Virus record (IMG/VR): IMGVR_UViG_3300009605_000029
Span: 1 to 54,839 of that record
Length of the DNA stretch: 54,839 nt
Source: a virus
Direction: 5' to 3' (one strand)
The position numbers and the translations under genes were made by a program. The notes under the pieces were generated by a model. The model was not told the origin of the DNA, searched no databases, and worked only from the letters and a program-made list of their open reading frames with translations. Shown in pieces: positions 1,742-27,762 of this stretch (positions are counted from its first letter, which is position 1; every line of letters starts with the position of its first letter).

Positions 1742-1750
1742 TAGCGTAGA

Positions 1751-1796: not shown

Positions 1797-1838
1797 TTGA
1801 TCTGATCCAACTCACCACGAGAGAGGAGGCTCCGTAGT

Positions 1839-2105: not shown

Positions 2106-2106
2106 C

Positions 2107-2193: not shown

Positions 2194-2197
2194 TATA

Positions 2198-10457: not shown

Positions 10458-11486
10458 TTACTGGCGATTCCTCTGGCGCAGGGGATGGCTCTCATATACT
10501 GGATGTTCCAACAACCGTTCTACTAACTCTTTCATCTCTGGACTATCAACCCTACCAATGGCCTCACTTCTACGTTCGGGATCTAATGAGTCCTGTAGTA
10601 TTTCAACAGCCTTCCCAAACTGTGTAGCGAACTTCTCTGGTTTATATAGGCCCGCTATCTTGGCTTCTAGTGCCCTCAGAGCCCTCTGCCACCGTGGTGG
10701 CTCACGCCCACCCTCCTCATCCCCACCCATATAGTGCCAAGGATACATTGGGGCACTACTTTCTTCCTGCATTCTTTCCAATGATTCCGGCACAATATTT
10801 CTTAAATGCGCCAGATGGCCGAACTCATGCATACTTGTAAATCTTTCAGCAGGCGACCATTCTTCCGTCATGGGTCTTCCGCTTGGATCTATCTCAAAGC
10901 CTGTTCCTGCTTCCCTTGAACCCCTATCGCCAGCACCAACTAGAAATAAGCTTTCTGTACCATGGTGTGGAGAATAGGGCCTATCACTAGGTTGGTTTTC
11001 AGCACTAAATGGTGAGCCAGACCATCTTGATGGAGAATCATATTTCAGCGAAGATGGAGGTTGACCACGCATATACTCCTCCCACCGCGCTGAAAGAGGT
11101 AGATCATGTAAATAGCTAGTATCGGCAGGAAAAAGAAGCTCCGAAGTTGAAAGACTTGTTGATGGCCAGATGGCGAGACCGCCCGGATAAGTTTGAGAGC
11201 CAGAGATTTTTTCACCTATCCACCCTGCTGCGGTAGGATGTTCTATAGATCTATGAACTGCCACATCACCACCAACCAAGGCATTAAGGCTATCCAGCAA
11301 ATTTTCCATTCTATCTTCATTGATATTGATATCTTGATAATATTTTGAAAGATCAGGATCTGGTGATTCGGGAGCGCCCCTTCGTTCTGTCATTAGCTGC
11401 CACAGCCGCCGTCTTCTTTCTTCCTGATCTGGATCAGATGAGCCACCCGTCTGATACCGGGGCAATGATCTTATGCCGTTACTCAT
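10458..11486 (-). CDS. Zincin-type metalloprotease-like virion protein
   Basis: This 342-residue protein carries H220-E-F-G-H224, the HExxH zinc motif, within a helix followed by A-H-L-R-N. A downstream segment E-K-F-A-T-Q-F-G-K-A-V could supply the third ligand, a layout I recall from phage zincins. The N-terminus has R-S-L-P-R-Y-Q-T-G-G, a version of the P-x-Y-Q-x-G-G peptide found in the large virion proteins of this operon. The region between is Pro/Ser-rich and probably loose. A virion-borne peptidase helping maturation or entry is plausible. Activity is unproven. Confidence 0.6.
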   Translation of the reverse strand: MSNGIRSLPRYQTGGSSDPDQEERRRRLWQLMTERRGAPESPDPDLSKYYQDININEDRMENLLDSLNALVGGDVAVHRSIEHPTAAGWIGEKISGSQTYPGGLAIWPSTSLSTSELLFPADTSYLHDLPLSARWEEYMRGQPPSSLKYDSPSRWSGSPFSAENQPSDRPYSPHHGTESLFLVGAGDRGSREAGTGFEIDPSGRPMTEEWSPAERFTSMHEFGHLAHLRNIVPESLERMQEESSAPMYPWHYMGGDEEGGREPPRWQRALRALEAKIAGLYKPEKFATQFGKAVEILQDSLDPERRSEAIGRVDSPEMKELVERLLEHPVYESHPLRQRNRQ

Positions 11487-11946
11487 TACTGCCCCACCGT
11501 GCAGGAGATGGGCGATTGATCATCCCACGAATATCCACATGGGTAAATGATTTGTAACGGCCTATGCCAAAAAGCTTGGCATCTGGATGACGTTCAAGCA
11601 TATCCGCTACTTCAGATGGAATAGATCCCATCTTAGTGACATCAGCGGCTCCGCAGGTCATATGCATCGAATTAGCAACACCACCTATGGCTGCATTGTA
11701 GCGTGGATCTCGGTACCAACTGTTGACCAGTACACTTGATGTGCCGTTCTTCGCACGAAGCCACTCAAGAACGTCGATCAGCTTATAGGCGTTCTCTAAT
11801 AACTCTAAGGGTGGTGCGGTCAGTACAACATCATCGCTTCTACGCCCAACGTCGCATATCTCCAGCGCAGAGAAGTTTCCAGATATGTTGGCATACAAAT
11901 CCGCTAGACCTTTGCCGCAGATTTCTACCCACTCACCCTTCGTCAT
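11479..11946 (-). CDS. Endolysin, M15 peptidase family
   Basis: This 155-residue enzyme has the M15 zinc-peptidase layout: V-N-S-W-Y-R-D-P-R-Y-N (about 74-84), then S-M-H95-M-T-C-G-A-A-D102, matching the H...D zinc pair, and T-H136-V-D-I-R for the third ligand. Such enzymes cut peptidoglycan stem peptides (D-Ala carboxypeptidase or L-Ala-D-Glu endopeptidase). No signal peptide is seen, so it should depend on a holin, and the gene just upstream in the operon is holin-like (14-base overlap). Confidence 0.85.
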   Translation of the reverse strand: MTKGEWVEICGKGLADLYANISGNFSALEICDVGRRSDDVVLTAPPLELLENAYKLIDVLEWLRAKNGTSSVLVNSWYRDPRYNAAIGGVANSMHMTCGAADVTKMGSIPSEVADMLERHPDAKLFGIGRYKSFTHVDIRGMINRPSPARWGSNE

Positions 11947-12256
11947 GCTCTTTGAAATCCGGGGAATTGTCCAGTAGCTTGGGACGCCTGGGACTTTTCA
12001 CCGCTTGAGCTATGCCAGATGCCACGGCCCCTATCTGTGGCCCAAAGTATTGAGCGATTCTGGGGCCAGCGGTCCATCCAAGCAATCCGGTAAAAATCGT
12101 GCCCAAAAGCGCATAGGCGGCGTTCGGCACAGTTGCCCAAAGCAGGGAATCGACCACAATGATAACGGCGGTAAACACAAGAGATACGAACAGAAATGTG
12201 CGGGCAGCACTAAGGGAGCCGCGTTCATCCTTAAGTATTTCGCTAATGGTATTCAT
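11933..12256 (-). CDS. Holin-like two-helix membrane protein
   Basis: I take the ATG at 12256. An ATG three codons earlier is also in frame. The 107-residue product has a charged N-terminus (L-K-D-E-R-G-S-L-S-A-A-R), a hydrophobic helix (F-L-F-V-S-L-V-F-T-A-V-I-I-V-V), a second helix (Y-A-L-L-G-T-I-F-T-G-L-L-G-W) and a basic/acidic tail. The length and two helices suit a class II-like holin, and it directly precedes the endolysin. No sequence family is assigned. Confidence 0.65.
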   Translation of the reverse strand: MNTISEILKDERGSLSAARTFLFVSLVFTAVIIVVDSLLWATVPNAAYALLGTIFTGLLGWTAGPRIAQYFGPQIGAVASGIAQAVKSPRRPKLLDNSPDFKEHDEG

Positions 12257-12261
12257 ACGAA

Positions 12262-15200
12262 TCATCCCTGCTTTATAGAAGTCATAAGAGTATCGACACC
12301 TGTCAAAATACTTTGACGACTTTCAAGAAGTCTCTGATAATACTCTCGTTTTTCGTCATCAGACATTGATCCGCGAGGTAGTTTTCCTAAAAGGTCCCTT
12401 CTTTCACGCCACTTTCTCATCTGGTTCTGAATATATCTCAACTGTCTTTGATGCCTCAATATGTTCAAGTGCTTTTCTCTATACTCAAAACCCTTTTTGC
12501 GATCTCTTTCAGTAATACTATTTAGTGTAGCGACAGTAGTATCAAGTTCTTCTATCATTTCAAAAAATTCTTGCTGACGGCCTCCGCGTGTCCTGGGATC
12601 AGTTAACAGATCACCAAGAATGGGAACGTTAACGACACCTTCGCCGCCGATCAAAGACTTGAAATCAAAATCTTTGGTGGTGCCGATCACGCTCTCTGCT
12701 TCTGCCAGATTCATATATGGATCATATGGTAGATCCGGCAACCATCCAGTACGAGCTACCCTGTCTGCGACCGTTACGACATAGCCTCCCATTGTGCCGA
12801 CATACTGACGCATCATGTATTCGACCTTCATGGGAGATGTTAGAAAGTCTAGGTTTTTAACCAATGGTATGCTGTTGGCAAAATCGGCTATGCCCCGAGC
12901 AACATTACTCGTATACATATTACGTTGCTCATTGGGAGATAAAGTTTCTTCCATCCATGAATCAACTATGGCGTCCTTTCTAAACGTATCGTAATTACGC
13001 ATCGCATTAACTACTGGGGAAAACAGTTGTGGTCCCCCTATGCTTAGTGAGGTGCGTAATTGTCGCCAAGTTTCTTCCCCCACATCTACTGCACCTACGT
13101 CCTTTTCTACAATCGCTTCAAGTATCTTCTCTGGAATAACCTTAAAGAGAACGCCGACCTCAAATGGTATGGGAATTTTTAGCCATGCATGATCCGACAT
13201 GGGAAGCACCCAGTTATCGGCCTTAACCTCATCTCTCAAATCCTGCCATTCGTCATCATCTCGCATCAAGAAGTAAAGAACGCTGGTTGCGGCGGTTAAT
13301 AGAAGGCCACGACCCAGGACCATTCCTCTACTCTTTTGCCACATGGGAAGACCTTCGTACTTATCAGCAGTTAATCCGTATCCAAAAACTCCTGGAATAT
13401 CAGAAGAACCCTTTTTGCCACGGAGGCCCCGGTAAGTAACATCCATGCCCTGTAGCCTGCCATTCATAAACGGCACGGTAGCCATATACGTACTGAGCGT
13501 CGGACTCGCACCCCTACGACCATAGTTCATAATTTCTATGGCATAGTATTGTGCAAGCGACTTGTCCCCTGTCATAGCTAGTACGCGGTCATATACGGCA
13601 AGTCTGGTCGCAACTTCAGATTGTTTGGCTATACGTCCCGTCAAATTCCAAGCTGCTGCAAGAGGAGTAAATGGCTTTTTCCAATCCAGATTAGCCTTGT
13701 CAAGTTCCCTTTGCATGACTTTGCCATATTGACCGGGCTCTGCAACAAAGTCGATCCCTATTGATAGTCCCGCCTCGTCCGCCCTACGCAGTATATCTGT
13801 ATCTAAAGCATTTCTAAACGCCTCAAGAACAAGCTCTGGTCCCCCGCCAGTAAGGGTCATCGCATTCCAAGAATCTCTGAAAACATTCTTTATGGCGAAG
13901 GGCGGCGTCCTTGTAACAGCATCTCTCAACAGCGAAGAGGATCCCGTAAGGGCTTTCTGCGTTAGTTCACCGAGCTTGCGTCCTCCAAATAATTCTTGCA
14001 ACTGCTTTTTCGGGTTGAATCCCAGCATCATTGTGGACATAGCAAGCTGGACATCATCAAACTCATAAAAAACCGGGATGCCCTCTTCCATAACCCGTAC
14101 AACACGATTATCAAGAGAGCCTGCCATGCTACTAATATTTATTTTTCTTGCATCTCCCAGAGCTACGGCATCCCTGACCGTTCGTGATACCGATGCATTC
14201 ATCATAGCATCGCGAACTAATGCTTGTGTGTTTCTTATAACTCCATCTGCCAAATCTGATGATATCGGATCCATGCTACCTGTCAGGGCTTTCTCTACCA
14301 GATTGACTCCACGCTTTCTTATCTCTTCTCGTGAACCTACCGGAAAATCTTCATCTGTCGCTACGTCGCGATAAAACGGCGCATACGGCATAGACAACCA
14401 CTCGTCACGCATCTCTCTGGTGATCATGCCAGTGTTATAAGACATCTTGATCATGTGATTGTCGTATGCGTTATAACGATCCCAAAACTCTACAATAAAT
14501 TGGTTGCTTTCATTCGTTTCTACTTCTCTGATAATTTCGTTTAATTTATCTTCGCTAAATTTATTTTGTCGGCCTCTCTCCCGAGTTGTCCGTTCGGGAT
14601 TAATGGCATCGTAGGCTTGCTCGAATCTTTCCAACTTGAGCCTAACCGCAGGGTCGAGATCTTCTCTTCTCACATCTTCAGATAACGACCTGAGACTATC
14701 ACGGCGATCCTTCGTCCATAGTATTCTCTTGGCCATGCCATAAAGAAATGCAGTTTCTGTATCCTTAGAATCTATGATCGGAGCAAATATCTCATTGAGT
14801 CCCTGGATACGACCGTCACCCCCATATGTTTCTTGTAACTCATCGTCATAGACGGGTGCGTTCTCAAACCTTCCAGATCCAACCGATGTGCCGAGATAGG
14901 ACAATGGTCCCCTAAGCATCAATCCTGGCAGCCAATTCAGTGCATTGTCAGAATTACGCCACATAACCAAGGCTGACGTTTCAGCATCTAATTGCGCCCT
15001 ATTCTGTGCGGCCAGAAGCTTATCGGTCTGCTTTACAACCCACTGGCGACGATCTAAATAGAGATAGCGCAACTCCTCAGTTGTTTTCTCCAAGTTACTT
15101 TCCGTAGCCTCAACAGTATCTCCAGTAAGATCATCTGGATCTAACGCACCATCCTTATCAAAACTTTTTCTTGTAGCGTCCCCATCTACTGATGACATGA

Positions 15201-18200
15201 GGCCACTTTCTATGGCATCATGAGCAAGACTTAGCGCCCCGGAACTAGATTTGCTCTTATTATTGAACAACGTTTGATATTGAGCGGGCATCTTATAGGC
15301 ATAGTCGGGATGCTTGCCACGCATCTCCATGAACGTATCCAGGGCCAGCTTATATTCCTCGGAATTTTTCTTATTCTGGTCCAAGCCTATTAGTGCTACA
15401 GATCCCGTGTGCGTATCACGCATACTCTGAACGAGCTTACGCTGATTCTCAATGGCCTCCACCGTATTGGGAATTGGTCCCGCAGACTCCCGAATAATTC
15501 CACGATTGGCAATTATTTTATCAGCAATATCATCTACTTTCGCCTGCTCACTTATCCTCATCTGATCAGATGGCGCAGCATCACGCAGGACAATGGCTGT
15601 TCTTAATTGTTCTATATCCTCAGGGTTTGCGTAACGCAGCAAGTCATTGGATCTAACTATAGAATCAACCGTATATTCTTTGTCACCCAAGAATCCAGCC
15701 CCACGGTCGCCAACCTCACCGCGTTCTATTCGTCCAAGTATCTTCATGACATCAACGATGTCAGCATCCTTGGCCGCATCAACGAACCCCTCAAGAAACC
15801 CCCGAATACCCTTGCCAATTTTGCGGGTCTTCTTTCCCTCTATATATGCATCGGGATGTCGTACCATATTTTGCAGCAGAGAAATAACAGCTTCTTTTTC
15901 AATATCTGCTTCGGCCAAGTCTACTTTCTTATCAGCAGATTCTACAACAGCACGTTCAAACCATGTTAATTTCGCATTATATGCTTCCTCATCTATCTCT
16001 TTTGGTACTATGTTATTTTCGTTTCTAACAAAATTATATAGTACCTCTAATTCTTCTTCGGTTAAATGATCTCGAATTATCAGCGCGTGCAGCCCCTCAT
16101 GAAAGGCCGCATCTCTTACAACCTCTTGTGCGCTTTCCATGTTATTAGGGTCAATTGCGGCAAGATTGATAATGATTCTATTGCCGGGACGATCATATAT
16201 GGCGGGAAGATCTGCGCTCATTTCCTCGCCTCGTACTGCTACATCACCTAAAAATTGAAACAAGCCATTAGCGTCATCTACATACATGCGCTGTATGTTG
16301 TCAGGAAGTCTCATCTTCTTGACAAGATCTTCCACATTTCTGTCTAGTATCTCAAATCGGGTTTCTATCGTATCGACATATCGCCTTCTGAGAGCATGAA
16401 TATTATCCTGCAAAGAAGAAGGAATTGCACCAGTTTTCATTAGAGCTTGTACCAAGCTCCTGCCCCCGGCAGTTCCTAATTGAAGTATGCTCTCCGTGGG
16501 TGCCATCCTATCGGGCCTTGCAATCGTACCTTGGATGGTATCCAGAATTCCTAGATCACTAAGCTCTTGTAATGGAGCAGATGTCGATGTAAGAAGCGCA
16601 GTGTATTTTTCTATAAATTCTTTTTTATTTAATGGTTTACCTGGATTTTTTTCATTATAACGAACCAACAAATCGTCAACCTGACTAGTCCACGGAGTGT
16701 TCTTCTCCGCCAACTTACTGCGAACAAGCTCAGGATCTGATTCTATAACCCAGGATTCTTTATCCTGCACCCTTGTATCTCCAGGCTGCGTTACTCCTTC
16801 CATCGTTAGATCCAATGGTTTGTAACTCACATTGAAACGCACCCTGGATTCACTAACCGCAGTTGGCAGCCTTTCACTTTCCTTTCTTCTTTCTTCTATC
16901 TTTTGTTCTTCATATAGAGGCTCGACCTGACTCCTCATGTAGCGATCAACTTCAGTCAGGGCCATATTATTAATTTGGTTTTCATATGCACCGCGAGATT
17001 CACTCACTCCCCTTTCTTTTTTTGTTTTATTGTATACATCTTCAATAGCTTTTCTACCCGCTGCATTTATTTGTCTAGTTCCTACGCCAGCAAATCGTGA
17101 TGTTTCAATTGTGGGAGTTGAAATCCTTGTCCAGTTACCTTTATCGACGGTGTACCATTGCCCCTTATTTTGATCAAAAAAGAATACCTGCTTATTGTTG
17201 TCAATGGCCATCTGCACACCCCAGCCAGTACCGCCTTCGACTGCTCCCGGCCTTTTTTTATCCCATGTACCGATGGCAAAAATTTGATCGGCATATTTTA
17301 CCTGCAACCAATTTCTTCTCAATAAATCAGCGACATATCCAGTGCCACCACTAAACTCTTTACCCAACGCAGTCGCTGCTTTTCTTAAATGAACATCAGC
17401 TTCAGCAAGTAGTTCATCAGAAACCTCGGTGTTCATACTCGGAAGTGTACTTTTCCTGTGCTGGGGAGCATGAAGATGTTTAATATTATCTGATAATAAT
17501 CCGTATCCTAATCCAATTTTTCCCCATAACGTATCCGATCCTTTTGCTCCCCCAGACAACATTGTTATCCCAGCTGCCACGCCTTCCCAATCAGGAGGGA
17601 TACTCACGCCAGCTTCTTGCGCTGGGAATCGTTCGTGGGCTATTTCGTGAGCCAAGACGAACAACATCACTTCATCTGTATCCAAGAAATCTCTATCAAT
17701 ATCACTGACATGCCTTAGATATTTTTCTACATTTGCGTTTTCCGCTTTTACTGAAAAACCTTTCCCTTCTTTTGCTCGTTTAGCTAACTCCTGTACCTTA
17801 CCATAGCTGATAATAATTCTATTCGGATCCTTCAGATGTCTTGCGGAGGTCACGCGACCTGCATCGTTGATCAGCCGTGGGTCATCAGCTTTTACAAACT
17901 CAACATCAACGCCCCCAGAAATTTCTGGAAAAATATTTTCTATTACTGGTGCCCACTTAGCGCCCAACCGTTGCTCTTCTGTTAACTCGGGAGAAAGCTG
18001 ACTATCCGGCACGGTTCCCCATGGAAATTGTGTAACTCCATAGTTATTTAATAAGTTGTTCCAGGTATCTGTTGCAAAACCTCCCACACCTAACTCTATC
18101 TGACTTTCGTCTACCGGACGTTGGGCTTCCCATGTATCTGGAGATAGGATTACGTCAGGAGCGGCTGAGTCCGTGGGGTTGAAAACTCCAGTTTCTATTA

Positions 18201-21200
18201 GCCGCGCCAGTGATTCATCGAATGACTGACTATTAAATTCATCACCCAACGCCGTTTTGGTATTTGCTCTTAATGTACCAATTGATAGAGATGGATATTT
18301 TTGATCCCCCTGATCTGTTATTTCCACAACCCTGTCAGTCATAAAATCTATATGACTATCAATATTTGGATTATGATAAAAATCAGGAAGGAAAAGAGGT
18401 CTGTAATTTCCCTTCCCCAATCCCTCTAAATAGAGTTGGTCTTCAGGACTGCCACGAGATGCGTAATGTGCGGGAAGTTGTAGTAGGCGCGAGTACATCA
18501 ATAACCTTTGAGCGTATGTCGCTTCTCCCCAACTCGACGCCCCGGTCATATCAAGTAGCAATTTCTCGAATGGCCTACTCTCTACTCCTGCTCCCGTGCG
18601 TTTCGCCAACGCATTACCGATTCTCCTTCCATCCCTCAGGTAAATATTTTTAGACCCGAGAAGATCTATAATATCATCATCAGAAATATATTCTGGACGC
18701 CCATCTTCTAGGGAAACCTCCCCATTTTTATCGGTAATCAATCCTACTAATTTATCTTCAAACTTCCTCACTACAGATCTTGTCTCATTTGGGATAGGGA
18801 TTCCGTCCACACCTACATCATATAATTCATCTCGCACTTTCCACTGAGATATATTTCCTAGTGCCCGAATAGCGAGCGCCCCCTGAATTGTATCCTTTAT
18901 ATCCTTAGTGTCGTCAACAAATAGATCAGCAATTTTTATGAATTGTGACGCAGAAATATCACGGGGAAATTCAATATGACGCCTTACGTTTTCAGAAAGA
19001 AATCTAGAAGCCAGCGCATCTTTTTCGGCATCTGAAGCATCTACGTCAATCGCCGCCATCTTCTTTGTAAACTTCTGGTGTTCTATTTCGGCAGCCCTGC
19101 TCATCGTCTGGCCGTTGGACTCACTCTGATTTACAACATTGATAGTTTCATCAAGCCACCGATCAAATCTCTCTGTATCTGGTTCACCAAAAACCCGCCT
19201 AGCGGCCTTTTCTTTATCCTTGGAATTATTTAAGAAATAATTTTTAGCTTCTTGAAGTCTTTGATTTATTGTCTGCAAATAAATAATACTTTGTTCACGC
19301 TTGATTCTTGATATTTCTGCATTGTTACTTTGGTGCTGCATGAAAACACTTGACTGAATTTCATCTCTATCTCTCTTCCAGGCTTCATCACTGGCATACT
19401 TCTTTTCCCCATATATCTCAGCTAATTCACGGGTGAATGCAAACTTGGGACTTTTGTAAAGATCATCGTTCCGACTCTCAAGCTCTTCTAATCTTCTGTC
19501 CAACTCATCCAAAGTTTTTCTAATCTGAGGTTGCTGCTGTGTGAACGGCTTGCCCTCCTCTCGCGATATGAAATCATAAAAAAGAAGGCCATCCATAACA
19601 TCACTATTGTCAACATCCCGTTGAGCAATGCTGGATGCTTTTTCGTTTTTGCCACGACCTGTGAGTAATATTTCCCCAAGTTCTGCAATATCGAAATTGG
19701 CTCTATCGGAAGAGGCAAGTTCTAGATCTGAAATCGTCAGATCCCCATCGACACCTACACTTATTTGTTCTGACCCTGGACCTCGGTGAGTGCCCAGGTC
19801 TTCGGCCATCCGGAAATATCCACCTATCCCGAACGAACCACCCATCAAGGATCGTAGCACCCCACGGAACGAGGGCTTTTGGCCACCTATAACGGGATCG
19901 TCTGGGAATCTTTCTGCTCGCCGTCTAGTTTGCTGAATACCCAACAGGCTTTCGTCTGCATCAGCTTCAATCGCCGCTTGTTTGGCCCTTTGATATTGTT
20001 CGTTTCCAGTAAGACCGCCCATCTCGCCAAGTCCACCACCCAATTCGACTACAGTTCTACGCAATCCCTTGAGTCTTTCGGTAGCCATTTGATCCAAAGC
20101 GGCTTTTGCTTTTGTATATTTTCTTACTCCCGCATCATTTCCGGTATCACTATGACGCTTGATCAACTTGTCCAACTGTTCTTGGGCACCACTGTTTCTG
20201 GATTCAAAGTCTTTCACAATCCCTTCAACTTCTGATCGACTGATAAAGCCAGACCTTAGTAACTCGTCCATACCAAAAGGTATTGACGCCCATTTTCCTC
20301 CGAACATCTCGGTAATTCCATCAGCAATATCTGGTTCTACGCCAAGTTCTCTAAATACTGGCAACAACTCATCAGATATCCCGGTAATATTTTTGCCAAC
20401 GCTCTTTAATGCGTCATCTCCTCGGCGCTCTGCTGACTTTAACGTCGCCGTCAAAGGTGCATTCGCGTTATGGTTCCTAAGTTTGATACCAAGAACTTGA
20501 TGGGTGACCAACTTCGCAATCCCGCCAACAACGCCACCAACCTTGAAATCTTCCGCCATGGAACGACCAATATCTTCCATGGCATTGGGATCATACAGAC
20601 CACGGGCAGAAAGAGCTTGAAGCCACTGAGCCGACGCTTCCTGAGTCGCTTCCTGGAGGCCCGTGCTTAGGGCATCACCGAAACCAAATGTTTTTTCTAA
20701 ACTTGAAACATGACGAGCCGCATTCGGGCTGAGGCCAGCCTTCATTCTACCCATCATTTTTGATACAGGAGCCGGGAACAACCCGTACTTGATGGGCAAT
20801 ACCTCTGTCAGCCCGATAAGGGCACCCATCATATGAGCCGCACTTTCCTTGTACCACGGCACATTTGTACCAGTTCTTTGCTCGTAGTCAGCTATGCGGC
20901 GTGTCTGATCGCTGATGCCCATGCCTATACCAGCGCCCATGGCGGCATACCATCCATACGGAAGTCGGCTGATGGCACTGAGCCCCGCAACCTGACCAAG
21001 ACCCGTACCAACTGCGGGAAGAAATGCATCCCGATAGGCAGGATCTCTTTCACGCGCTCTTTTTGAGGCTTGCCTACGCAGCCGCTTTTCTACAGGTAGG
21101 TCAGCAAATGGCGTAGCTACGCCTATAGCGGCTTGGGCACCGGAGAGAAATATATCTGCCACACCGCTTGGTATGGACTTAAAGCCTTCCCATGCGGATC

Positions 21201-21360
21201 CAGCTAGGGTGCCCTCATCCTCCTCTTCTTCTTCTTCACCCGAACCAAAATAGTATTGTTGTTCGAGGCTGCGAGGATCTGGAATGATTTGGCCCATATA
21301 TGAATCCATGTCGGGAACATAGACCCATCGGCCATCGGGTAGCTGTATTCTTTTTGGCAT
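12262..21360 (-). CDS. Giant polyvalent protein (zincin motifs, SLOG-like module, LPD38-like region)
   Basis: This 3032-residue protein fits the phage polyvalent class: multidomain proteins carried in the virion and delivered with the genome. The N-terminus is K-R-I-Q-L-P-D-G-R-W-V-Y-V-P-D, then an acidic run and hydrophobic Gly/Ala-rich helices (about 60-290). A long helical section follows. H1238-E-I-A-H1242 is a first HExxH. A SLOG/DprA-like module spans about 1262-1410 (S-G-G-A-K-G-S-D; A-D-Q-I-F-A-I-G; E-G-G-T-G-W-G-V-Q-M-A-I-D). H1754-E-G-L-H1758, with a later E-K-E-A-V-I, looks like the MPTase zincin of polyvalent proteins. Residues about 2580-2850 resemble LPD38, with a hydrophobic segment. 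It lies just upstream of the lysis genes. Confidence 0.75.
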   Translation of the reverse strand: MPKRIQLPDGRWVYVPDMDSYMGQIIPDPRSLEQQYYFGSGEEEEEEDEGTLAGSAWEGFKSIPSGVADIFLSGAQAAIGVATPFADLPVEKRLRRQASKRARERDPAYRDAFLPAVGTGLGQVAGLSAISRLPYGWYAAMGAGIGMGISDQTRRIADYEQRTGTNVPWYKESAAHMMGALIGLTEVLPIKYGLFPAPVSKMMGRMKAGLSPNAARHVSSLEKTFGFGDALSTGLQEATQEASAQWLQALSARGLYDPNAMEDIGRSMAEDFKVGGVVGGIAKLVTHQVLGIKLRNHNANAPLTATLKSAERRGDDALKSVGKNITGISDELLPVFRELGVEPDIADGITEMFGGKWASIPFGMDELLRSGFISRSEVEGIVKDFESRNSGAQEQLDKLIKRHSDTGNDAGVRKYTKAKAALDQMATERLKGLRRTVVELGGGLGEMGGLTGNEQYQRAKQAAIEADADESLLGIQQTRRRAERFPDDPVIGGQKPSFRGVLRSLMGGSFGIGGYFRMAEDLGTHRGPGSEQISVGVDGDLTISDLELASSDRANFDIAELGEILLTGRGKNEKASSIAQRDVDNSDVMDGLLFYDFISREEGKPFTQQQPQIRKTLDELDRRLEELESRNDDLYKSPKFAFTRELAEIYGEKKYASDEAWKRDRDEIQSSVFMQHQSNNAEISRIKREQSIIYLQTINQRLQEAKNYFLNNSKDKEKAARRVFGEPDTERFDRWLDETINVVNQSESNGQTMSRAAEIEHQKFTKKMAAIDVDASDAEKDALASRFLSENVRRHIEFPRDISASQFIKIADLFVDDTKDIKDTIQGALAIRALGNISQWKVRDELYDVGVDGIPIPNETRSVVRKFEDKLVGLITDKNGEVSLEDGRPEYISDDDIIDLLGSKNIYLRDGRRIGNALAKRTGAGVESRPFEKLLLDMTGASSWGEATYAQRLLMYSRLLQLPAHYASRGSPEDQLYLEGLGKGNYRPLFLPDFYHNPNIDSHIDFMTDRVVEITDQGDQKYPSLSIGTLRANTKTALGDEFNSQSFDESLARLIETGVFNPTDSAAPDVILSPDTWEAQRPVDESQIELGVGGFATDTWNNLLNNYGVTQFPWGTVPDSQLSPELTEEQRLGAKWAPVIENIFPEISGGVDVEFVKADDPRLINDAGRVTSARHLKDPNRIIISYGKVQELAKRAKEGKGFSVKAENANVEKYLRHVSDIDRDFLDTDEVMLFVLAHEIAHERFPAQEAGVSIPPDWEGVAAGITMLSGGAKGSDTLWGKIGLGYGLLSDNIKHLHAPQHRKSTLPSMNTEVSDELLAEADVHLRKAATALGKEFSGGTGYVADLLRRNWLQVKYADQIFAIGTWDKKRPGAVEGGTGWGVQMAIDNNKQVFFFDQNKGQWYTVDKGNWTRISTPTIETSRFAGVGTRQINAAGRKAIEDVYNKTKKERGVSESRGAYENQINNMALTEVDRYMRSQVEPLYEEQKIEERRKESERLPTAVSESRVRFNVSYKPLDLTMEGVTQPGDTRVQDKESWVIESDPELVRSKLAEKNTPWTSQVDDLLVRYNEKNPGKPLNKKEFIEKYTALLTSTSAPLQELSDLGILDTIQGTIARPDRMAPTESILQLGTAGGRSLVQALMKTGAIPSSLQDNIHALRRRYVDTIETRFEILDRNVEDLVKKMRLPDNIQRMYVDDANGLFQFLGDVAVRGEEMSADLPAIYDRPGNRIIINLAAIDPNNMESAQEVVRDAAFHEGLHALIIRDHLTEEELEVLYNFVRNENNIVPKEIDEEAYNAKLTWFERAVVESADKKVDLAEADIEKEAVISLLQNMVRHPDAYIEGKKTRKIGKGIRGFLEGFVDAAKDADIVDVMKILGRIERGEVGDRGAGFLGDKEYTVDSIVRSNDLLRYANPEDIEQLRTAIVLRDAAPSDQMRISEQAKVDDIADKIIANRGIIRESAGPIPNTVEAIENQRKLVQSMRDTHTGSVALIGLDQNKKNSEEYKLALDTFMEMRGKHPDYAYKMPAQYQTLFNNKSKSSSGALSLAHDAIESGLMSSVDGDATRKSFDKDGALDPDDLTGDTVEATESNLEKTTEELRYLYLDRRQWVVKQTDKLLAAQNRAQLDAETSALVMWRNSDNALNWLPGLMLRGPLSYLGTSVGSGRFENAPVYDDELQETYGGDGRIQGLNEIFAPIIDSKDTETAFLYGMAKRILWTKDRRDSLRSLSEDVRREDLDPAVRLKLERFEQAYDAINPERTTRERGRQNKFSEDKLNEIIREVETNESNQFIVEFWDRYNAYDNHMIKMSYNTGMITREMRDEWLSMPYAPFYRDVATDEDFPVGSREEIRKRGVNLVEKALTGSMDPISSDLADGVIRNTQALVRDAMMNASVSRTVRDAVALGDARKINISSMAGSLDNRVVRVMEEGIPVFYEFDDVQLAMSTMMLGFNPKKQLQELFGGRKLGELTQKALTGSSSLLRDAVTRTPPFAIKNVFRDSWNAMTLTGGGPELVLEAFRNALDTDILRRADEAGLSIGIDFVAEPGQYGKVMQRELDKANLDWKKPFTPLAAAWNLTGRIAKQSEVATRLAVYDRVLAMTGDKSLAQYYAIEIMNYGRRGASPTLSTYMATVPFMNGRLQGMDVTYRGLRGKKGSSDIPGVFGYGLTADKYEGLPMWQKSRGMVLGRGLLLTAATSVLYFLMRDDDEWQDLRDEVKADNWVLPMSDHAWLKIPIPFEVGVLFKVIPEKILEAIVEKDVGAVDVGEETWRQLRTSLSIGGPQLFSPVVNAMRNYDTFRKDAIVDSWMEETLSPNEQRNMYTSNVARGIADFANSIPLVKNLDFLTSPMKVEYMMRQYVGTMGGYVVTVADRVARTGWLPDLPYDPYMNLAEAESVIGTTKDFDFKSLIGGEGVVNVPILGDLLTDPRTRGGRQQEFFEMIEELDTTVATLNSITERDRKKGFEYREKHLNILRHQRQLRYIQNQMRKWRERRDLLGKLPRGSMSDDEKREYYQRLLESRQSILTGVDTLMTSIKQG

Positions 21361-21397: not shown

Positions 21398-23761
21398 CTA
21401 TTCACCAATTGCCACACCAGAAGTAGCCGCAGCCTGTCCAAATACCTGCCACAACCAGTTGTCCATCTGTTCCTTACTGATATAATCCCGCTCCCACATA
21501 CCCATCAACACTTCCTGGAACTGCACCATCATTTGGGGTGTCATCCGACGTGATTCATCTAATTGCATCTGAATACCCTCTAATTGACCCAGAACCTGCG
21601 CGTCAATCTCATCACGCGAAGCTGCAGTAAGGAAAACGTCTCTTAGAACTTGGTTCTGTGTATCATACGTATTGTATCTGGATCTAGCAGCAGCCGCTGT
21701 AAGTGGAAGTCCTTCATAATCTCTAGCCAAATCACCCTGTTCTATCTGCCCGTAGGCGGCGTCTCTCAGCCCCTCGGCCAGGGCACCCGGCCTTCTTCCC
21801 ATTCCAGCGATTGCCCCACCAACATCTGCATAGAGACGAGTTCGAGCATCATCCCGTGCGTCCTGAGCCCGTTGCAGTTGATAAGCAGCCAACTCCCTTT
21901 CTGCGGGTGTTTCTGTACGGCCCCACAGATCTTGCGCTTTGAGCATATCTATTTGTCGCTCCGCAAGATTTACGTCCGCGCCTACCACGTCTTCTGTTGG
22001 ATCCGCTACTGGAGGGGGAGGCCCTTCTTCAATTCCTCGTACATCACCCGGTCCTTCTGGTTCCTGTGCTGCTATTTCTGCCTCACTTATTGGCTCCAGC
22101 CGCCACGTTTTTTCACCACTCGGACCCTCTATAGCAGGATCATAAAGTTCTCCGTCCATACCCATTCGCAAGAGATCTCCTTCAGCATCTCTATACTCTG
22201 GTCCAAACTGCTGTCCCGGTATCATTGCCTCGTAAATATTCGCAAGCCCTGTAGTTAAGCCCTGAACACCCCCATGCACATCAGCCCCCCTGCGCCTAAG
22301 CCATCGACCAATATCACTTGGTACATCTCTTTCGCCCGACGCATAAGTTCCTGGGGGCGTAACAAGATCGCCCTCCGGATCCCATCCCAATACCGCCCTA
22401 TACCCCGCAGGAACTTCGTCTCCATACTGCCAAGTAGGATCATCTGGATTTCTCCCACCATTTTGCAGCCCGATGATACCGCCAGAAGCTCTAGCGGGTA
22501 ACGGAGCATAACCCTGTCTTGGTGCGACATAGCCCGCACCAGCCGAATCCATAACATCTATATCAGGGAAATCTTGTCGATCCAGCCATGCTTGATTGGC
22601 TCTGTCCTGAAAATCATTCAAACCCAAGCCTGAACGGTATTCCGCAAGCTCTCTCAAATCCGTTTCTACTGGCAGTTCATCACGCAGCCAGTCATATCTT
22701 GGGGCTTTCGCCCTATCTGCACGTATCGCAGGTGAGTCTGCTAGATCTTTACCTGGAGGGGGCGCAGTATTCTCTGGAGTTGGTTCTGGCCCATCAAAGG
22801 GATCCAGGGCAACCAATCCTGTTATTCCCAATGCCCCTCCCCCTCTAATAATTGATCGCCTCCCTATCCCAGCCAAACCACTCTTCACCCCTGCGCCCGC
22901 ATCCCATACCTTTTTACCAGTTTTAGGATCTTTAACCCAACCACCAGCCCTACCTCCCATCCACCCCGGAGATTTACTTCTAGCCTGTTTGGGATCCAGT
23001 AACCGAGCCAAAAATTTTCTTTTCCCACCCGCTTCCCTCAGTGCTAACGTTCTTGCGCCAGCGCCCTCCAGGAGTCTTTGTGTCCGAGCACCTCCCCTTA
23101 ACCCCAACGCAAGCCGTCCTGTCCCGCCAATCAACCTGCCCGCAGGATGAAGCATCGCGGCCGAAAGTGCTGTACGCGCAGCAGTTCTAAAAGGATTTTC
23201 CGCTGCTTCTTTCCATGAACCCGCACCAGTAGCTAGACGCCCAATACCAGACCAAAATCCAGGTCCTTCGGTATCTCCACCTTCTTGATATCTAGGAATA
23301 AGACCGCCGTGAGCCATCATCGGGGGACCACCAGGAGGGGGACCGCCCATCGGGGGACCACCCGGACCCATGGGAGGGCCGCCAGGAGGAGGACCGCCAG
23401 GACCCATCGGAGGACCGCCAGGGGGAGGACCGCCAGGGCCGCCGGGGGGTCCACCACCGGGAGGTCTACCAGGACCACCGGGAGGAGGGCCGCCACCAGG
23501 GCCACCGACAGGGCGATCTTCTCCAGCAAACTCATTATAAGTTTGTTCAGCGATGGTTCCCGCTGGTTGTCCCTGGCTCGCACGCATAGCCTCGTCGGCC
23601 TGTCTCGCTGCGTTACGGTTTCCCATCTCAGATACAATGAGATTCTGTGGAGGCGGGGCCATACCAGGGAGCGTGCTTCCCGGATTCTTAAATTCCTCCC
23701 CGAGACGCTCGTCGGAAAAACCCTGTATATATTTTTCCCATTGTATAAAGCTGAGAGCCAT
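21398..23761 (-). CDS. Virion protein with collagen-like Pro/Gly region
   Basis: This 787-residue protein begins with a short domain of a type common in marine phage virion proteins (F-S-D-E-R-L-G-E-E-F, later L-I-V-S-E-M-G-N-R). A Pro/Gly repeat region of about 70 residues follows (about 83-150), with G-P-P-x-G-G units. The shared peptide G-G-L-I-P-R-Y-Q-E-G-G comes next, then a basic Arg/Gly-rich middle and S-G-G-I-I-G-L-Q-N-G-G. The C-terminus is acidic and helical. Low complexity is extreme, with no enzyme motif. An internal virion or ejection protein is the likely role. Confidence 0.6.
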   Translation of the reverse strand: MALSFIQWEKYIQGFSDERLGEEFKNPGSTLPGMAPPPQNLIVSEMGNRNAARQADEAMRASQGQPAGTIAEQTYNEFAGEDRPVGGPGGGPPPGGPGRPPGGGPPGGPGGPPPGGPPMGPGGPPPGGPPMGPGGPPMGGPPPGGPPMMAHGGLIPRYQEGGDTEGPGFWSGIGRLATGAGSWKEAAENPFRTAARTALSAAMLHPAGRLIGGTGRLALGLRGGARTQRLLEGAGARTLALREAGGKRKFLARLLDPKQARSKSPGWMGGRAGGWVKDPKTGKKVWDAGAGVKSGLAGIGRRSIIRGGGALGITGLVALDPFDGPEPTPENTAPPPGKDLADSPAIRADRAKAPRYDWLRDELPVETDLRELAEYRSGLGLNDFQDRANQAWLDRQDFPDIDVMDSAGAGYVAPRQGYAPLPARASGGIIGLQNGGRNPDDPTWQYGDEVPAGYRAVLGWDPEGDLVTPPGTYASGERDVPSDIGRWLRRRGADVHGGVQGLTTGLANIYEAMIPGQQFGPEYRDAEGDLLRMGMDGELYDPAIEGPSGEKTWRLEPISEAEIAAQEPEGPGDVRGIEEGPPPPVADPTEDVVGADVNLAERQIDMLKAQDLWGRTETPAERELAAYQLQRAQDARDDARTRLYADVGGAIAGMGRRPGALAEGLRDAAYGQIEQGDLARDYEGLPLTAAAARSRYNTYDTQNQVLRDVFLTAASRDEIDAQVLGQLEGIQMQLDESRRMTPQMMVQFQEVLMGMWERDYISKEQMDNWLWQVFGQAAATSGVAIGE
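23311..23513 (-). repeat. Pro/Gly-coding tandem repeat
   Basis: The DNA is an irregular tandem of GG(A/G)CC(G/A)CC-type units that encode G-G-P-P-P-G-G and M-G-P-G-G-P-P blocks, locally far richer in GC than its surroundings. Copy number probably varies by slippage. Long open frames on the other strand here are a by-product of the composition. Confidence 0.8.
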
Positions 23762-23798
23762 AATTATTTCCTGTGACTATCCTTAATTATTAAGACTG

Positions 23799-26700
23799 CT
23801 ACCATTGATTCTGCAGGCCAAGCCCCGGACCCTTCCAATCTGAAGTTCCATAACCTTCCCAAAGATCTTTCCCCGTCCATGATTGTGATGAGGATGCTGG
23901 CGTAACTCCTTGTTGATTCTGCGTTCCTTGTTGATTCTGCGTTCCTTGTTGATTCCGTTGAAACTTGTCCCATGCACCCAAGCCCGCGACACCCGCAGCC
24001 ATTGCACTAGCACCAGGACCCGTCTGGGGCTCATATGCGCTTTGTGTAACGGTTCCTTGATAAGGAAGTCCACCCATAGCTGACTGCTGCCAACCAATAT
24101 TTGCTCTTTCTTGGTTCAACTTATTCTGCCAATCCTGATAGCCCATACCAAGCGATTGCTGTTGTAGTTGGCGCTGTTTTTCACCCGCCGCTTCCATTCC
24201 CCGCAATCTTTCAAGCTGCTGCTGCTGTTGTTGGGCACCTAGCTGCATCTGCTGCCCACCAACACCAGCTAGTTGGCCACCCATTCCTCCCATCTGGCCA
24301 TATAATTGACCCTGTGCTCCGATAGCACCCTGCTGTTGGCCGAGCATCTGACCATAGGTGCCCCAACCTTGTTCCCGAGCGGCTTGGGCAGCTTGTAGCG
24401 CACCCAGCCCAAGCTGAGTACCAGTTTGAGCAGCCTGTAATCCTTGCTGTTGACCCAACTGGGACATCCCGACACCCGCTTGGGCGGCGGCTCGTTGAGC
24501 CGCAAGTCCTTGGGCTCTCTCTGCAGCACCAGCCAATGAAGCGGCCCTCTGGGCCTCAAGTCCCTGCATTCCAAACTGGGCACCCTGTCCAACGGCCCCT
24601 ATTTGAGCTTGTAGTCCTTGTAATTGGCGAGCAGCGCCAACATCACCCATTTGGGCTGCTTGCTGCTGTGCCCTCATTTGAGCATCACTGCCGTACTGCC
24701 CGGCACCAATACCCGTTTGCAACGCCTGTAACTGTGCTTGGCCAGCCTGTTGCCCGGCAGCCAAGCCCTGCTGTGCAGCCTGTAATTGTTGTGCCCCACC
24801 TGCTTGTGCGGCACCAACACCAGCCTGTTGAGCAGCTAATTGGGCGGCAACACCTTGTTGGCCAGCAGCAGCAGCTTGCTGCGCTAATTGCGCTTGCTGG
24901 CTCATGGCCTGCTGTGCAGCACTACCGCCAGCCTGTTGAGCTTGCTGTAGAGCGGCAATGCCCTGTTGCTGTGCTTGCACGGCTTGTTGCGCTGCCGCTT
25001 GACGGCCAGCTTGACCAGCCTGCGCGGCACCCATTCCTGCAATTTGAGCCTGCTGTTCCGCACCTAATCCAGCCTGTCTAGCGGCTCCCGCAGCCTGTGC
25101 CGCCTGTTGCGCTTGACTTTGTCCAGATTGAGCAAGTCCATAACCACCAAGTTGAGCCTGCTGTTCCGCGCTTAATCCAGCTTGTCGAGCCTGCGCTGCT
25201 TGCATCGCAGCCTGTTGAGCCTGAGTCTGAGCCTGCTGTGCAGCACCAAAGCCACCAAGTTGAGCTTGCTGTTCTTGGGTAAGACCAGCCTGTTGTGCTA
25301 CTGCCGCTTGCTGCTCCGCACTAAGCCCCATCTGCTGGGCTTGCTCTCTACGACGAGCATCTTCACGCTCTCTCCCAACAGCACTCTGGAATGCTTCTTG
25401 TTGCCCCTTGCCAATAATCTCAGCAGCTTGCTGTGAAGCCGCTTTCGCCTGCTCTGCGGCCTGAACAGCCTGTCGCGTACCACCGAAAGCACCAGCCTGT
25501 GCCGCCCGTGATCCCAACTCTTGCCCTTGCATCCTCTGAAATTCCATCAACTGCTGTAACTGAGGATCAGTGACGCCAGCGGTGTACTGCGACATATACT
25601 GAGACAGATCTGCTCCCCCTCCCAACTGAGGTGCCTGTGCACCCAAAGCTCGCATACGTTGAGCGGCTTCTGCCCCAGCGGCTCCTGCTCTACCACCAAC
25701 ACCAGTTATACCAGCAAGTGCTTGTTGACCAAGCTGTTGTCCTTGAGCACCAGCCGCTTGTATGGCCCGTGCGGCTTCTGCCCCAGCCGCACCTGCTCGA
25801 CCACCTACACCAGTAACACCCGCAAGACCCGCTTGGCCAAGTTGTTGCGCTCCTGCACCAGCCGCTTGTATGTCGGCAGCAGTTTGGGCACCAGCCGCAC
25901 CTGCTCTGGCACCGACACCAGTTATGGCTCTTTGACCCGCCAATGCTGCCTGTTGACCCTCAAGACCAGCCTGTCGTATGTCAGCAGCACCTATCTGACC
26001 AGCTTGTTGTGCCTGTAGCCCAGTTCCACCCAACTGACCCCTAATATCTGCACCTAGCTCTCCAGCCTGACCACCCAAACCACCCATCTGTGCCATGGCT
26101 TGTTGGCCTATCCCAAGAGCTTGTTGCCCGGTAGCACCCATTCGGCCCATAGCTTGTGCGCCAAGCTGCTGTGCTTGGGTTCCGAGCCCGGCCATTTGAG
26201 CCTGTCCAGCCGCACCAGCCTGTTGCGCCTGCTGACCTAACGCCGTCGCCTGAGCCTCACGAGCTTGAGCCTGTCCCGCCGCACCAGCCCCCAACCCCCG
26301 TATTCCAGTAGCAAGTTGCTGCTGGGCTGTTAGGGCCGCCTGTCCCGCACCAGCCATGCCACCACCCAATCCAGCCATTTGTGCCTGGGCGGCTTCTGCA
26401 GCCGTCGCTTGTCCCGCACCTAAAAATTGTTGCCGTGCTTGCTCTGTCGCTCCTGCCGCTGCCTGCCCTATACCTAACAATCGTTGCTCTACCTGTCCCG
26501 CCGTTCCCGTTTGCCTCATTCCCGCACCAGCGAGTTGACCTTGCAGTTCAGCGCGAGCACCAAGCTGGCCCATACCTAGAGCGGCCTGTTGTGCCTGTTG
26601 CTGTGCAAGCGGAGCGGCGGCCCCAAATTGAGCGGCCATCTGAGCGTACTGCGGCTGTAGACCCATCAATCCTTGCTGGGCACCACCAATCATTTGGCCA

Positions 26701-27758
26701 GCTTGACCAAGGGTTTGGGCTGCCTGACGGGTTCCCATCGGTCCCATGCCCTGGCCATATGCGACTCGGCCTGCCATGGCAGCAGCTTCGGGCTGTGTAA
26801 AACCAGCAATCCTTTGCCCGGCATATTGCTGATAGGGACGCTGGCCTTCGGTTACAATACGATCAGTAAGATTGGCCCACTGTTGTGCGGTCTGCTGTGG
26901 CACACCATAGGAGGTGACCCTGGACACCGAAGGTGCGGGACCACCCTGCTGTAGCCCTATTATGCCACCGGAAGCTCTCCGGGGTCGTCCCTGATTCATT
27001 AGCTCTTGGTAATATCTTATCTTCTGTTCATCTGACAGAAGATCTTCTTCTTCCTGTGGTAAATCACCTGAACCAAGACGACCGGGAGACATCAAGACAT
27101 CAGCGAGAGCCGACAGAGGATTAAGCGCGGATGCCCCACCAGCAAGAGCGAGACTTTTTATACCCCTTCCCTTGAAACGTCCCCCCATTCTCTTCAACGC
27201 ATCTTGAATCCGAACCCTTCGGCTTGGTGGGCTCCCTGGAGGAGGATGCCCCTGTGAAGCCCAATAACGCTCTTCTCTAGCATACTCTCCCATCATTCTT
27301 CGATGGGCAGCATCTTTCCGCTCCCTCTCACGAAGATCCCAATCTTCAAACACCCGATCTTGCCAGCGACGCGCCTCTTCAGGTTTTAGTGGACCCTCTC
27401 TCCCCTCCCATGGAAAAGGACCGCGAACTGTGCGTGATCCCCCGGCACCCGTGCCCGGACCTAACATACGATTTGGATCTGTGATTCTGCCTGCCCCACG
27501 AGCAACTGGCACCCGGCGTTGGCCAGCACGAACCATATCCCTTCTTTCGTTACGCAAACGATCAAGCTCATCGCGGGTATCCTGCCAATATCTCTCAGGA
27601 TCACGGAGATGTTCTTGGGAACCACTTCCGCCCGCTTCTATTTCCATCTCCATCATACGAATTTTGTATTCTATATCCTCTAAGGCTTTACGCATGGGAC
27701 TAGGACCACCATACTCGCCACCATGCTGATAACTAGGATAATTAATTTTTCTAGGCAT
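23799..27758 (-). CDS. Ala/Gln/Gly-rich repetitive virion protein
   Basis: The start is placed at ATG 27758 (M-P-R-K-I-N-Y-P-S-Y-Q-H-G-G), five bases from the upstream gene. Codons further up are open but overlap it. The 1319-residue protein has an Arg-rich N-terminal third containing S-G-G-I-I-G-L-Q-Q-G-G. About 850 residues of A/Q/G repeats follow (units such as A-G-L-S-A-E-Q-Q-A-Q-L-G-G), probably helical or coiled-coil. In the middle is D-P-Q-L-Q-Q-L-M-E-F-Q-R and A-G-A-F-G-G-T-R-Q, a motif I recall from many phage internal or tail proteins. It may act as a fibrous core or tape-measure-like element. No catalytic site. Confidence 0.6.
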   Translation of the reverse strand: MPRKINYPSYQHGGEYGGPSPMRKALEDIEYKIRMMEMEIEAGGSGSQEHLRDPERYWQDTRDELDRLRNERRDMVRAGQRRVPVARGAGRITDPNRMLGPGTGAGGSRTVRGPFPWEGREGPLKPEEARRWQDRVFEDWDLRERERKDAAHRRMMGEYAREERYWASQGHPPPGSPPSRRVRIQDALKRMGGRFKGRGIKSLALAGGASALNPLSALADVLMSPGRLGSGDLPQEEEDLLSDEQKIRYYQELMNQGRPRRASGGIIGLQQGGPAPSVSRVTSYGVPQQTAQQWANLTDRIVTEGQRPYQQYAGQRIAGFTQPEAAAMAGRVAYGQGMGPMGTRQAAQTLGQAGQMIGGAQQGLMGLQPQYAQMAAQFGAAAPLAQQQAQQAALGMGQLGARAELQGQLAGAGMRQTGTAGQVEQRLLGIGQAAAGATEQARQQFLGAGQATAAEAAQAQMAGLGGGMAGAGQAALTAQQQLATGIRGLGAGAAGQAQAREAQATALGQQAQQAGAAGQAQMAGLGTQAQQLGAQAMGRMGATGQQALGIGQQAMAQMGGLGGQAGELGADIRGQLGGTGLQAQQAGQIGAADIRQAGLEGQQAALAGQRAITGVGARAGAAGAQTAADIQAAGAGAQQLGQAGLAGVTGVGGRAGAAGAEAARAIQAAGAQGQQLGQQALAGITGVGGRAGAAGAEAAQRMRALGAQAPQLGGGADLSQYMSQYTAGVTDPQLQQLMEFQRMQGQELGSRAAQAGAFGGTRQAVQAAEQAKAASQQAAEIIGKGQQEAFQSAVGREREDARRREQAQQMGLSAEQQAAVAQQAGLTQEQQAQLGGFGAAQQAQTQAQQAAMQAAQARQAGLSAEQQAQLGGYGLAQSGQSQAQQAAQAAGAARQAGLGAEQQAQIAGMGAAQAGQAGRQAAAQQAVQAQQQGIAALQQAQQAGGSAAQQAMSQQAQLAQQAAAAGQQGVAAQLAAQQAGVGAAQAGGAQQLQAAQQGLAAGQQAGQAQLQALQTGIGAGQYGSDAQMRAQQQAAQMGDVGAARQLQGLQAQIGAVGQGAQFGMQGLEAQRAASLAGAAERAQGLAAQRAAAQAGVGMSQLGQQQGLQAAQTGTQLGLGALQAAQAAREQGWGTYGQMLGQQQGAIGAQGQLYGQMGGMGGQLAGVGGQQMQLGAQQQQQQLERLRGMEAAGEKQRQLQQQSLGMGYQDWQNKLNQERANIGWQQSAMGGLPYQGTVTQSAYEPQTGPGASAMAAGVAGLGAWDKFQRNQQGTQNQQGTQNQQGVTPASSSQSWTGKDLWEGYGTSDWKGPGLGLQNQW

Positions 27759-27762
27759 AGTT

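What the first reader, a model, noticed from the sequence alone, without database searches (positions are those of the whole stretch)
12262..21360. 3032-residue polyvalent protein joining two HExxH motifs, a SLOG-like module and an LPD38-like region
Seen: one uninterrupted frame of 9.1 kb, a sixth of the window, with HEIAH at 1238-1242, HEGLH at 1754-1758 followed by E-K-E-A-V-I, SLOG-like motifs at about 1262-1410, and a C-terminal region like LPD38. Known: polyvalent proteins of phages and conjugative elements are injected with DNA and bundle effector domains. Inference: this is a virion-delivered multi-effector. The pairing of a zincin directly before a SLOG module is the unusual part.
Basis: partly seen in the sequence, partly recalled or inferred. 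Interest (0 to 1): 0.8.

Follow-up and report, generated by a model that had tools for sequence, protein, structure and literature searches.

The report
Phage protease split by nested SLOG domain
A phage carries one giant protein, probably injected with its DNA, in which a nucleotide-binding SLOG domain sits inside the loop of a zinc protease; relatives carry another NAD-type domain in the very same loop, which hints at a swappable slot for disarming bacterial immune signals.

Summary
It is a phage-type polyvalent protein at the end of the virion gene block.

The evidence shows instead that the SLOG is nested inside the zincin. The zincin's second zinc helix (GAYENQINNMALTEV, E1460) lies after the SLOG. 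A zincin profile built without the window hits it in two collinear pieces on either side of the SLOG, and scores best when that stretch is cut out. Relatives have the compact zincin with no insert. Two other phage proteins carry unrelated inserts in the same loop; one is a NADAR domain.

The sister protein (59-71% identical) lacks the whole zincin1-SLOG block. The second zincin is widely conserved in LPD38 proteins, with E1823 as third ligand. The same SLOG family recurs in giant virion proteins of N4-like and crAss-like phages.

Most likely an injected, self-processing effector whose SLOG blunts NAD/ADP-ribose immune signals. The anatomy is well supported; packaging, proteolysis and ligand are inferred. 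A new variant of a known kind.

The parts
12262..21360 (-). whole polyvalent protein gene, 3032 aa
   Evidence: single ORF; lies at the end of the minus-strand virion block TerL-portal-MCP-tail
18088..21360 (-). residues 1-1091, N-terminal region shared with relatives; residues about 51-291 are the best conserved among distant LPD38 proteins
   Evidence: 59% identity to L095 over 1-1091; distant matches
17578..18087 (-). residues 1092-1261, zincin 1, first half (helix, three strands, HExxH helix)
   Evidence: absent in L095; matches L190/L191 zincin; AF2 topology; 3e11 zincin-like Z 4.7 over model 41-162
17635..17649 (-). HEIAH, residues 1238-1242
   Evidence: aligned with HExxH of the zincin-1 family
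17014..17577 (-). residues 1262-1449, SLOG domain nested in zincin 1
   Evidence: phrog_768 E 3.6e-10; alignment A1; AF2 pLDDT 95-98, 3imk Z 12.1; carries the near-invariant columns of the 42-row alignment A6
16891..17013 (-). residues 1450-1490, zincin 1, second half: glutamate helix GAYENQINNMALTEV
   Evidence: A11 profile hits 1448-1483 (i-E 1.2e-7) and 1223-1247 on the other side of the SLOG; excision scan optimum 1254-1446
16981..16983 (-). E1460, predicted third zinc ligand of zincin 1
   Evidence: invariant E of the YEN/VED motif in the family
15841..16203 (-). residues 1720-1840, zincin 2
   Evidence: H1754, E1755, H1758, E1823 conserved in relatives down to about 16-25% identity; AF2 core pLDDT 85-95; best structural neighbours include zincins, weak Z 3.9/3.5
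16087..16101 (-). HEGLH, residues 1754-1758
15892..15894 (-). E1823, predicted third zinc ligand of zincin 2
   Evidence: invariant in the 25-row alignment A7
12745..13257 (-). residues 2702-2872, LPD38
   Evidence: Pfam PF18857 E 1.9e-31; wider match phrog_18222 at 2296-2871

Best explanation
The ORF is a phage-type polyvalent protein, very probably carried in the virion and delivered early in infection. It has two zincin-type metallopeptidase domains. Zincin 2 (1720-1840; H1754, H1758, E1823) is the standing zincin of this LPD38 family. Zincin 1 (about 1092-1261 plus 1450-1490; H1238, H1242, E1460) is an accessory domain whose inter-helix loop holds a complete SLOG domain (1262-1449). Proposed working: after delivery the zincins cut the giant chain into working units (and may cut host proteins), while the SLOG domain binds or breaks NAD/ADP-ribose-type signal molecules of bacterial anti-phage immunity. 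The loop of zincin 1 works as an insertion slot: related phage proteins have no insert, a NADAR domain (L270), or an unidentified 230-residue domain (L267) there. Shown here: architecture, nesting, accessory nature and conservation of active-site residues. Inferred: packaging and injection, proteolytic activity, ligand and counter-defence role.
For: Nesting: a profile of compact zincin-1 relatives built without the window (A11) hits the protein in two collinear pieces flanking the SLOG: 1223-1247 (model 51-75) and 1448-1483 (model 73-112). With the SLOG cut out it scores 41.4 bits, E 3.4e-14, in one piece. An independent L190+L191 profile gives 21.9 bits for the excised form against at most 7.0 in 3000 shuffles, 4.2 in 5000 real fragments and 3.1 in 67 other HExxH fragments. 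A blind excision scan peaks at 1254-1446, the SLOG borders. Same break point in L267 (model 74/80) and L270 (75/76) with non-homologous inserts. The L270 insert is NADAR: Pfam E 0.02, 36% to a DUF1768 protein, E 5e-16. Accessory nature: L095 aligns over 1-1091 and 1481-3031 with nothing between. SLOG. Delivery: the same SLOG family lies inside N4-like virion RNA polymerases, crAss giant proteins and giants matching virion RNA polymerase or internal virion protein families. NAD/ADPR link: SLOG with NADAR in one giant chain in cr130_1 and L012; PMC9503650 proposes that viral SLOG counters cADPR-type signals.
Against: No experiment: packaging, injection, proteolysis and ligand are untested. Zincin folds are only weakly matched to solved structures (Z 3.9 and 4.7), and the zincin-1 first half of the model has low confidence (pLDDT about 40-79 by block). 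The SLOG is below Pfam cut-offs for cpYpsA and DprA, so its chemistry cannot be read off a known family. The nested SLOG itself is seen in this one contig only; no second copy was found in IMG/VR.
Confidence: 0.6

Rival explanations
1. Signal-gated protease: the SLOG is a sensor. Ligand binding in the loop between the two zinc helices switches zincin 1 on or off, so that the injected protein cuts itself or a host target only when the host immune signal appears.
For: The insert sits exactly between the two zinc-binding helices; the inserts in this loop include two domains tied to NAD/ADPR (SLOG here, NADAR in L270). PMC9503650 proposes SLOG domains as sensors in phage fusions.
Against: Nested domains often arise without allostery. 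Compact relatives have no sensor. A NADAR would be an enzyme, not a sensor. The AF2 model gives no reliable relative placement of the two domains (pTM 0.55).
Confidence: 0.17
2. DprA-like role: the SLOG binds single-stranded DNA and helps protect or recombine the incoming genome.
For: The closest annotated family is phrog_768, 'DprA-like'; weak Pfam DNA_processg_A matches; ShosA is among the structural neighbours at Z 5.9.
Against: The best structural match by far is 3imk (Z 12.1 against 5.9). 14 of 42 relatives match cpYpsA and 13 a nucleoside deoxyribosyltransferase model, against 7 for DprA. Association with NADAR in the same chains.
Confidence: 0.15
3. Mainly a structural or ejection protein; the zincins and SLOG are old passengers without a present enzymatic role.
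For: Large protein at the end of the virion gene block with a conserved N-terminal region and a long conserved C-terminal region. One relative, L204, has lost the zincin-2 motif (QAGLH).
Against: All predicted metal ligands of both zincins and the near-invariant SLOG residues are kept in the window. Zincin-2 H-E-H-E is kept in 24 of 25 rows down to 16% identity.
Confidence: 0.13
4. Tandem modules: a complete zincin simply followed by an independent SLOG.
For: HEIAH ends 20 residues before the SLOG; in L066 a SLOG and a compact zincin of this family do stand side by side, in the other order.
Against: The glutamate helix of the zincin family lies after the SLOG and no equivalent helix fits in the 20 residues between.
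Confidence: 0.03

Closest known systems
Phage-type polyvalent proteins (Iyer et al. 2017, PMC5512222), LPD38 type
   Same: Giant multidomain chain, zincin-like MPTase domains, LPD38 (phage-only in that survey), virion gene neighbourhood.
   Different: That paper's text does not mention SLOG or NADAR. It notes 'variable inserts' between the two zinc helices but no whole nested enzyme or sensor domain.
Zincin-like MPTases of polyvalent proteins
   Same: Helix, three strands, HExxH helix, then a helix with a zinc-binding Glu.
   Different: Zincin 1 is split by a 188-residue SLOG; its family (..HExxH..ADYENRIND.AL) has no Pfam match.
Phage SLOG proteins of phrog_768 ('DprA-like') and the SLOG fold of 3imk
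   Same: SGGAxGxDT, LLxRNxxQ, GGTxxxVQM and FAGxGxR motifs; Rossmann-like fold.
   Different: PMC9503650 describes viral SLOG as typically standalone; here it is nested in a protease within a 3032-residue chain. Below the Pfam cut-offs of cpYpsA and DNA_processg_A.
Virion RNA polymerases of N4-like phages (Klebsiella phage Pylas YP_009882040.1, Alteromonas phage PT15-A5) and crAss giant proteins (cr113_1, cr109_1, cr130_1)
   Same: Carry the same SLOG family inside a giant chain of about 3500-5800 aa.
   Different: SLOG not seen nested in a zincin there; no RNA polymerase domain was found in the window protein.

Membership tests
Phage-type polyvalent protein (LPD38 group) | several unrelated domains in one giant chain | tested here: met
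   two zincins, SLOG, LPD38 in 3032 aa
Phage-type polyvalent protein (LPD38 group) | LPD38 domain | tested here: met
   PF18857, 110 bits against cut-off 27
Phage-type polyvalent protein (LPD38 group) | gene lies with virion genes | tested here: met
   same strand, downstream of TerL, portal, MCP and tail genes
Phage-type polyvalent protein (LPD38 group) | protein is packaged and delivered into the host | not testable with these tools
   needs virion proteomics and an injection assay
Zincin-like MPTase, zincin 1 | HExxH plus Glu on a second helix | tested here: met
   H1238, E1239, H1242, E1460 by family profile in two pieces
Zincin-like MPTase, zincin 1 | zincin fold | tested here: inconclusive
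   expected order of elements in AF2 but low pLDDT; 3e11 Z 4.7 over 84 residues
Zincin-like MPTase, zincin 2 | HExxH plus Glu on a second helix | tested here: met
   H1754, E1755, H1758, E1823; A7 invariant or near-invariant columns
Zincin-like MPTase, zincin 2 | zincin fold | tested here: inconclusive
   a zincin heads the VIA list, but at Z 3.9, tied with unrelated rows; Foldseek not significant
Zincin-like MPTase, both | peptidase activity | not testable with these tools
   no bench work
SLOG superfamily | Rossmann-like fold with glycine-rich nucleotide loops | tested here: met
   phrog_768 E 3.6e-10; 3imk Z 12.1 against 6.2 for the next; motifs in A1
cpYpsA (PF12694) or DprA (PF02481) family proper | reaches the Pfam gathering score | tested here: not met
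   window: no cpYpsA match; DNA_processg_A 12.6 bits against 29.6; so filed only at superfamily level
NADAR (L270 insert) | reaches the Pfam gathering score | tested here: not met
   15.6 bits against 35.1, but 36% identity over 81% of the query to a DUF1768 (NADAR) protein, E 5e-16; called NADAR-like on that ground
Virion RNA polymerase (N4-like) | RNA polymerase domain | tested here: inconclusive
   no match in Pfam or PHROGs; absence of a match does not exclude it

The most novel reading that the evidence does not exclude
The loop between the two zinc helices of this zincin family is a general slot into which phages swap NAD/ADP-ribose-handling domains (SLOG here, NADAR in L270, perhaps another in L267), making injected proteases that are gated by, or that destroy, host immune signal molecules before phage genes are expressed.
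Probability: 0.25. Interest if true: 0.85.

Novelty: new variant of a known kind. Interest (0 to 1): 0.66.

Why it matters
If right, some phages bring counter-immunity domains (SLOG, NADAR) ready-made in the virion, ahead of any gene expression, embedded in a protease. The inter-helix loop would be a marker for finding further injected anti-signalling domains in the dark matter of giant phage proteins. It also suggests that some 'DprA-like' phage annotations belong to giant, probably virion-borne proteins rather than to DNA recombination.

Tried and rejected
Searching the zincin-1 half or the whole cassette as a single sequence in phages and IMG/VR found no relatives; only the L190/L191 comparison opened the family. 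Genome-contig scans with zincin-1 alignments found no relative. Pfam at E up to 10 for slices gave only chance-level hits. No PDB sequence relative. I first read the architecture as tandem zincin then SLOG and dropped it when the glutamate helix was found after the SLOG. I first read the L267 insert as ART-like by eye; PDB, phage and Pfam searches gave no support, so it is left unidentified. Base composition: the SLOG segment has low GC and the lowest GC3 of the parts tested (41.5% and 31.4%), but its GC is within the spread of the gene, so it does not prove recent transfer. Assembly chimera: unlikely, since the frame is open throughout and both zincin halves are present on either side at the family's insertion point. 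Which state at the accessory site is ancestral is unresolved: L190 and L191 have the zincin without SLOG, L095 and L204 have nothing. Searches were input errors.

Full report
Setting. The window is a whole 54,839-base IMG/VR virus record. Terminase, portal and major head proteins are recognised on the minus strand, followed by virion structural and tail-type genes, and at the end of that block lies the ORF in question. Downstream come a small hydrophobic ORF (11933-12265) and an endolysin-like peptidase (11479-11946, phrog_894). Nothing near the second half of the window DNA is in the phage collection, but portal relatives are plentiful in IMG/VR.

Observation. The ORF 12262-21360 is on the minus strand, 3032 aa, open throughout. 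LPD38 is certain. The SLOG module is found by PHROGs, by many homologues and by fold: in the AlphaFold model of residues 1086-1515 most of the SLOG has pLDDT 95-98, and its best PDB match is 3imk at Z 12.1, the next row being 6.2. The Pfam family that most SLOG relatives touch is cpYpsA, a SLOG family.

Relatives. Using the C-terminal region, 72 IMG/VR loci with related proteins were fetched. The closest complete one, L095 (2626 aa), aligns over residues 1-1091 and 1481-3031 of the window protein and has nothing in between. Thus the HEIAH-plus-SLOG segment is one accessory block. L204 is also empty at that site; L190 and L191 have 700-900-residue segments there, each ending in a HExxH.

The key finding. 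In L190 and L191 the HExxH is followed after about 27 residues by a helix with E-D-x-(I/V)-N-N-x-A-L. In the window the matching helix, YENQINNMALTEV, lies after the SLOG. Four tests support nesting. First, the L190+L191 profile scores the window fragment with the SLOG removed at 21.9 bits; 3000 shuffles reach at most 7.0, 5000 real fragments of other giant proteins at most 4.2, and 67 other HExxH fragments at most 3.1. Second, when excisions were scored on a 6-residue grid, the best was 1254-1446, which matches the SLOG borders found independently. Third, the SLOG-bearing protein L066 has a compact zincin of the same family, HELSH..ADYENRMNDNAL, which aligns across the splice point of the window with E 7e-8, a two-sequence comparison not corrected for the search over loci. 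Fourth, a last IMG/VR scan gave ten further loci of this zincin family. A profile made from eight compact members, none of them the window, L190 or L191, hits the window in two pieces, 1223-1247 and 1448-1483, and in one piece of 41.4 bits once the SLOG is removed.

A slot, not an accident. In the same scan two members had inserts at the same loop: the break in the profile is at positions 73-75 for the window, 74/80 for L267 and 75/76 for L270. The three inserts show no similarity to one another. The L270 insert is NADAR-like: Pfam NADAR at E 0.02, below the cut-off, and 36% identity to a DUF1768 protein of crAss-like phage cr126_1, E 5e-16. The L267 insert, about 230 residues, is unidentified. 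Three inserts are few; that they are united by NAD/ADP-ribose chemistry is suggested by two of the three only.

Zincin 2. HEGLH with E1823 is conserved in 24 of the 25 aligned proteins, down to about 16% identity; L204 has lost the motif (QAGLH). The model core has pLDDT 85-95. Zincins (anthrax lethal factor protease domain, plasmid ArdC, PprI) are among the structural neighbours and the first of them heads the list, but at Z 3.1-3.9, tied with unrelated rows, so the fold evidence is weak. It agrees with the published profile link of polyvalent MPTases to the lethal factor peptidase (PMC5512222). So the second HExxH is the ordinary part of this protein.

The SLOG in other giant virion proteins. 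The same SLOG family lies inside the virion RNA polymerase of Klebsiella phage Pylas and the RNA polymerase of Alteromonas phage PT15-A5, both N4-like, inside a 4328-residue protein of crAss-like cr113_1 and inside a 5801-residue protein of cr130_1 that also matches NADAR. Of 62 distinct SLOG ORFs in the fetched loci, 27 have at least 1000 residues, and 13 giants scanned include matches to virion RNA polymerase, internal virion protein and virion structural families. L012 has a sub-threshold NADAR match and a SLOG in one chain. N4 virion polymerase is packaged in the virion (PMC5512222) and crAss virions store and eject cargo proteins (PMC10172136), so delivery by the virion is a reasonable inference for this module.

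Mechanism. Shown: anatomy, nesting, accessory nature, conserved metal ligands and SLOG residues. Inferred from PMC5512222: zincins of polyvalent proteins process the chain or act on host proteins. Inferred from PMC9503650: viral SLOG domains bind or break cADPR-type immune signals. My best reading joins these: an injected chain, cut by its zincins, with the SLOG acting on host signals early. Whether the SLOG also gates the zincin is open.

Novelty. Polyvalent proteins, their zincins, LPD38 and phage SLOG proteins are known. Not found in the papers read: a SLOG in an LPD38 polyvalent protein, and whole domains nested between the two zinc helices. Only an open-access library was searched, and a full literature search was not possible.

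Noticed in passing
window 10458-11486 (-): 342-aa ORF with HEFGHLAHLRNIVPE, a third HExxH protein next to the endolysin-like gene; no match in PHROGs or NCBIfam.
   Followed up: partly
window 11479-11946 (-): Endolysin-like peptidase (phrog_894) overlapping a small hydrophobic ORF at 11933-12265.
   Followed up: partly
window 21398-30894 (-): Three large low-complexity ORFs (787, 1347 and 1043 aa): collagen-like GGPPGG, A/Q/G-rich repeats, Pro-rich; probably virion proteins.
   Followed up: no
window 34915-38445 (-): 1176-aa protein with near-identical repeats of 'DLDVDGTTNLDAVDIDGAVQ', tail-fibre-like.
   Followed up: no
L204 ORF 4148-11995: Relative in which the zincin-2 HExxH has become QAGLH while the distal E and the rest are kept: a likely pseudo-enzyme.
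   Followed up: partly
L190 residues about 1120-1950 and L191 about 1120-1800: Long unidentified segments in the same accessory site, upstream of an intact zincin 1.
   Followed up: partly
L267 residues 952-1185: Unidentified 230-residue domain nested in the zincin-1 loop; looks ART-like by eye, unsupported by searches.
   Followed up: partly
L261 residues 316-454 and 481-571: Two zincin-1 profile matches in one protein (second weaker, i-E 5.9e-5): possible duplication.
   Followed up: no
L004 (cr113_1): The SLOG region of the annotated CDS has in-frame TAG codons under table 11, in line with stop-codon recoding in crAss-like phages.
   Followed up: no
L271 ORF 3597-7352 (Pelagibacter phage Hodr, WDQ27578.1): A phage with a named laboratory host encodes a compact zincin-1 family member (E 2e-16).
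   Followed up: partly
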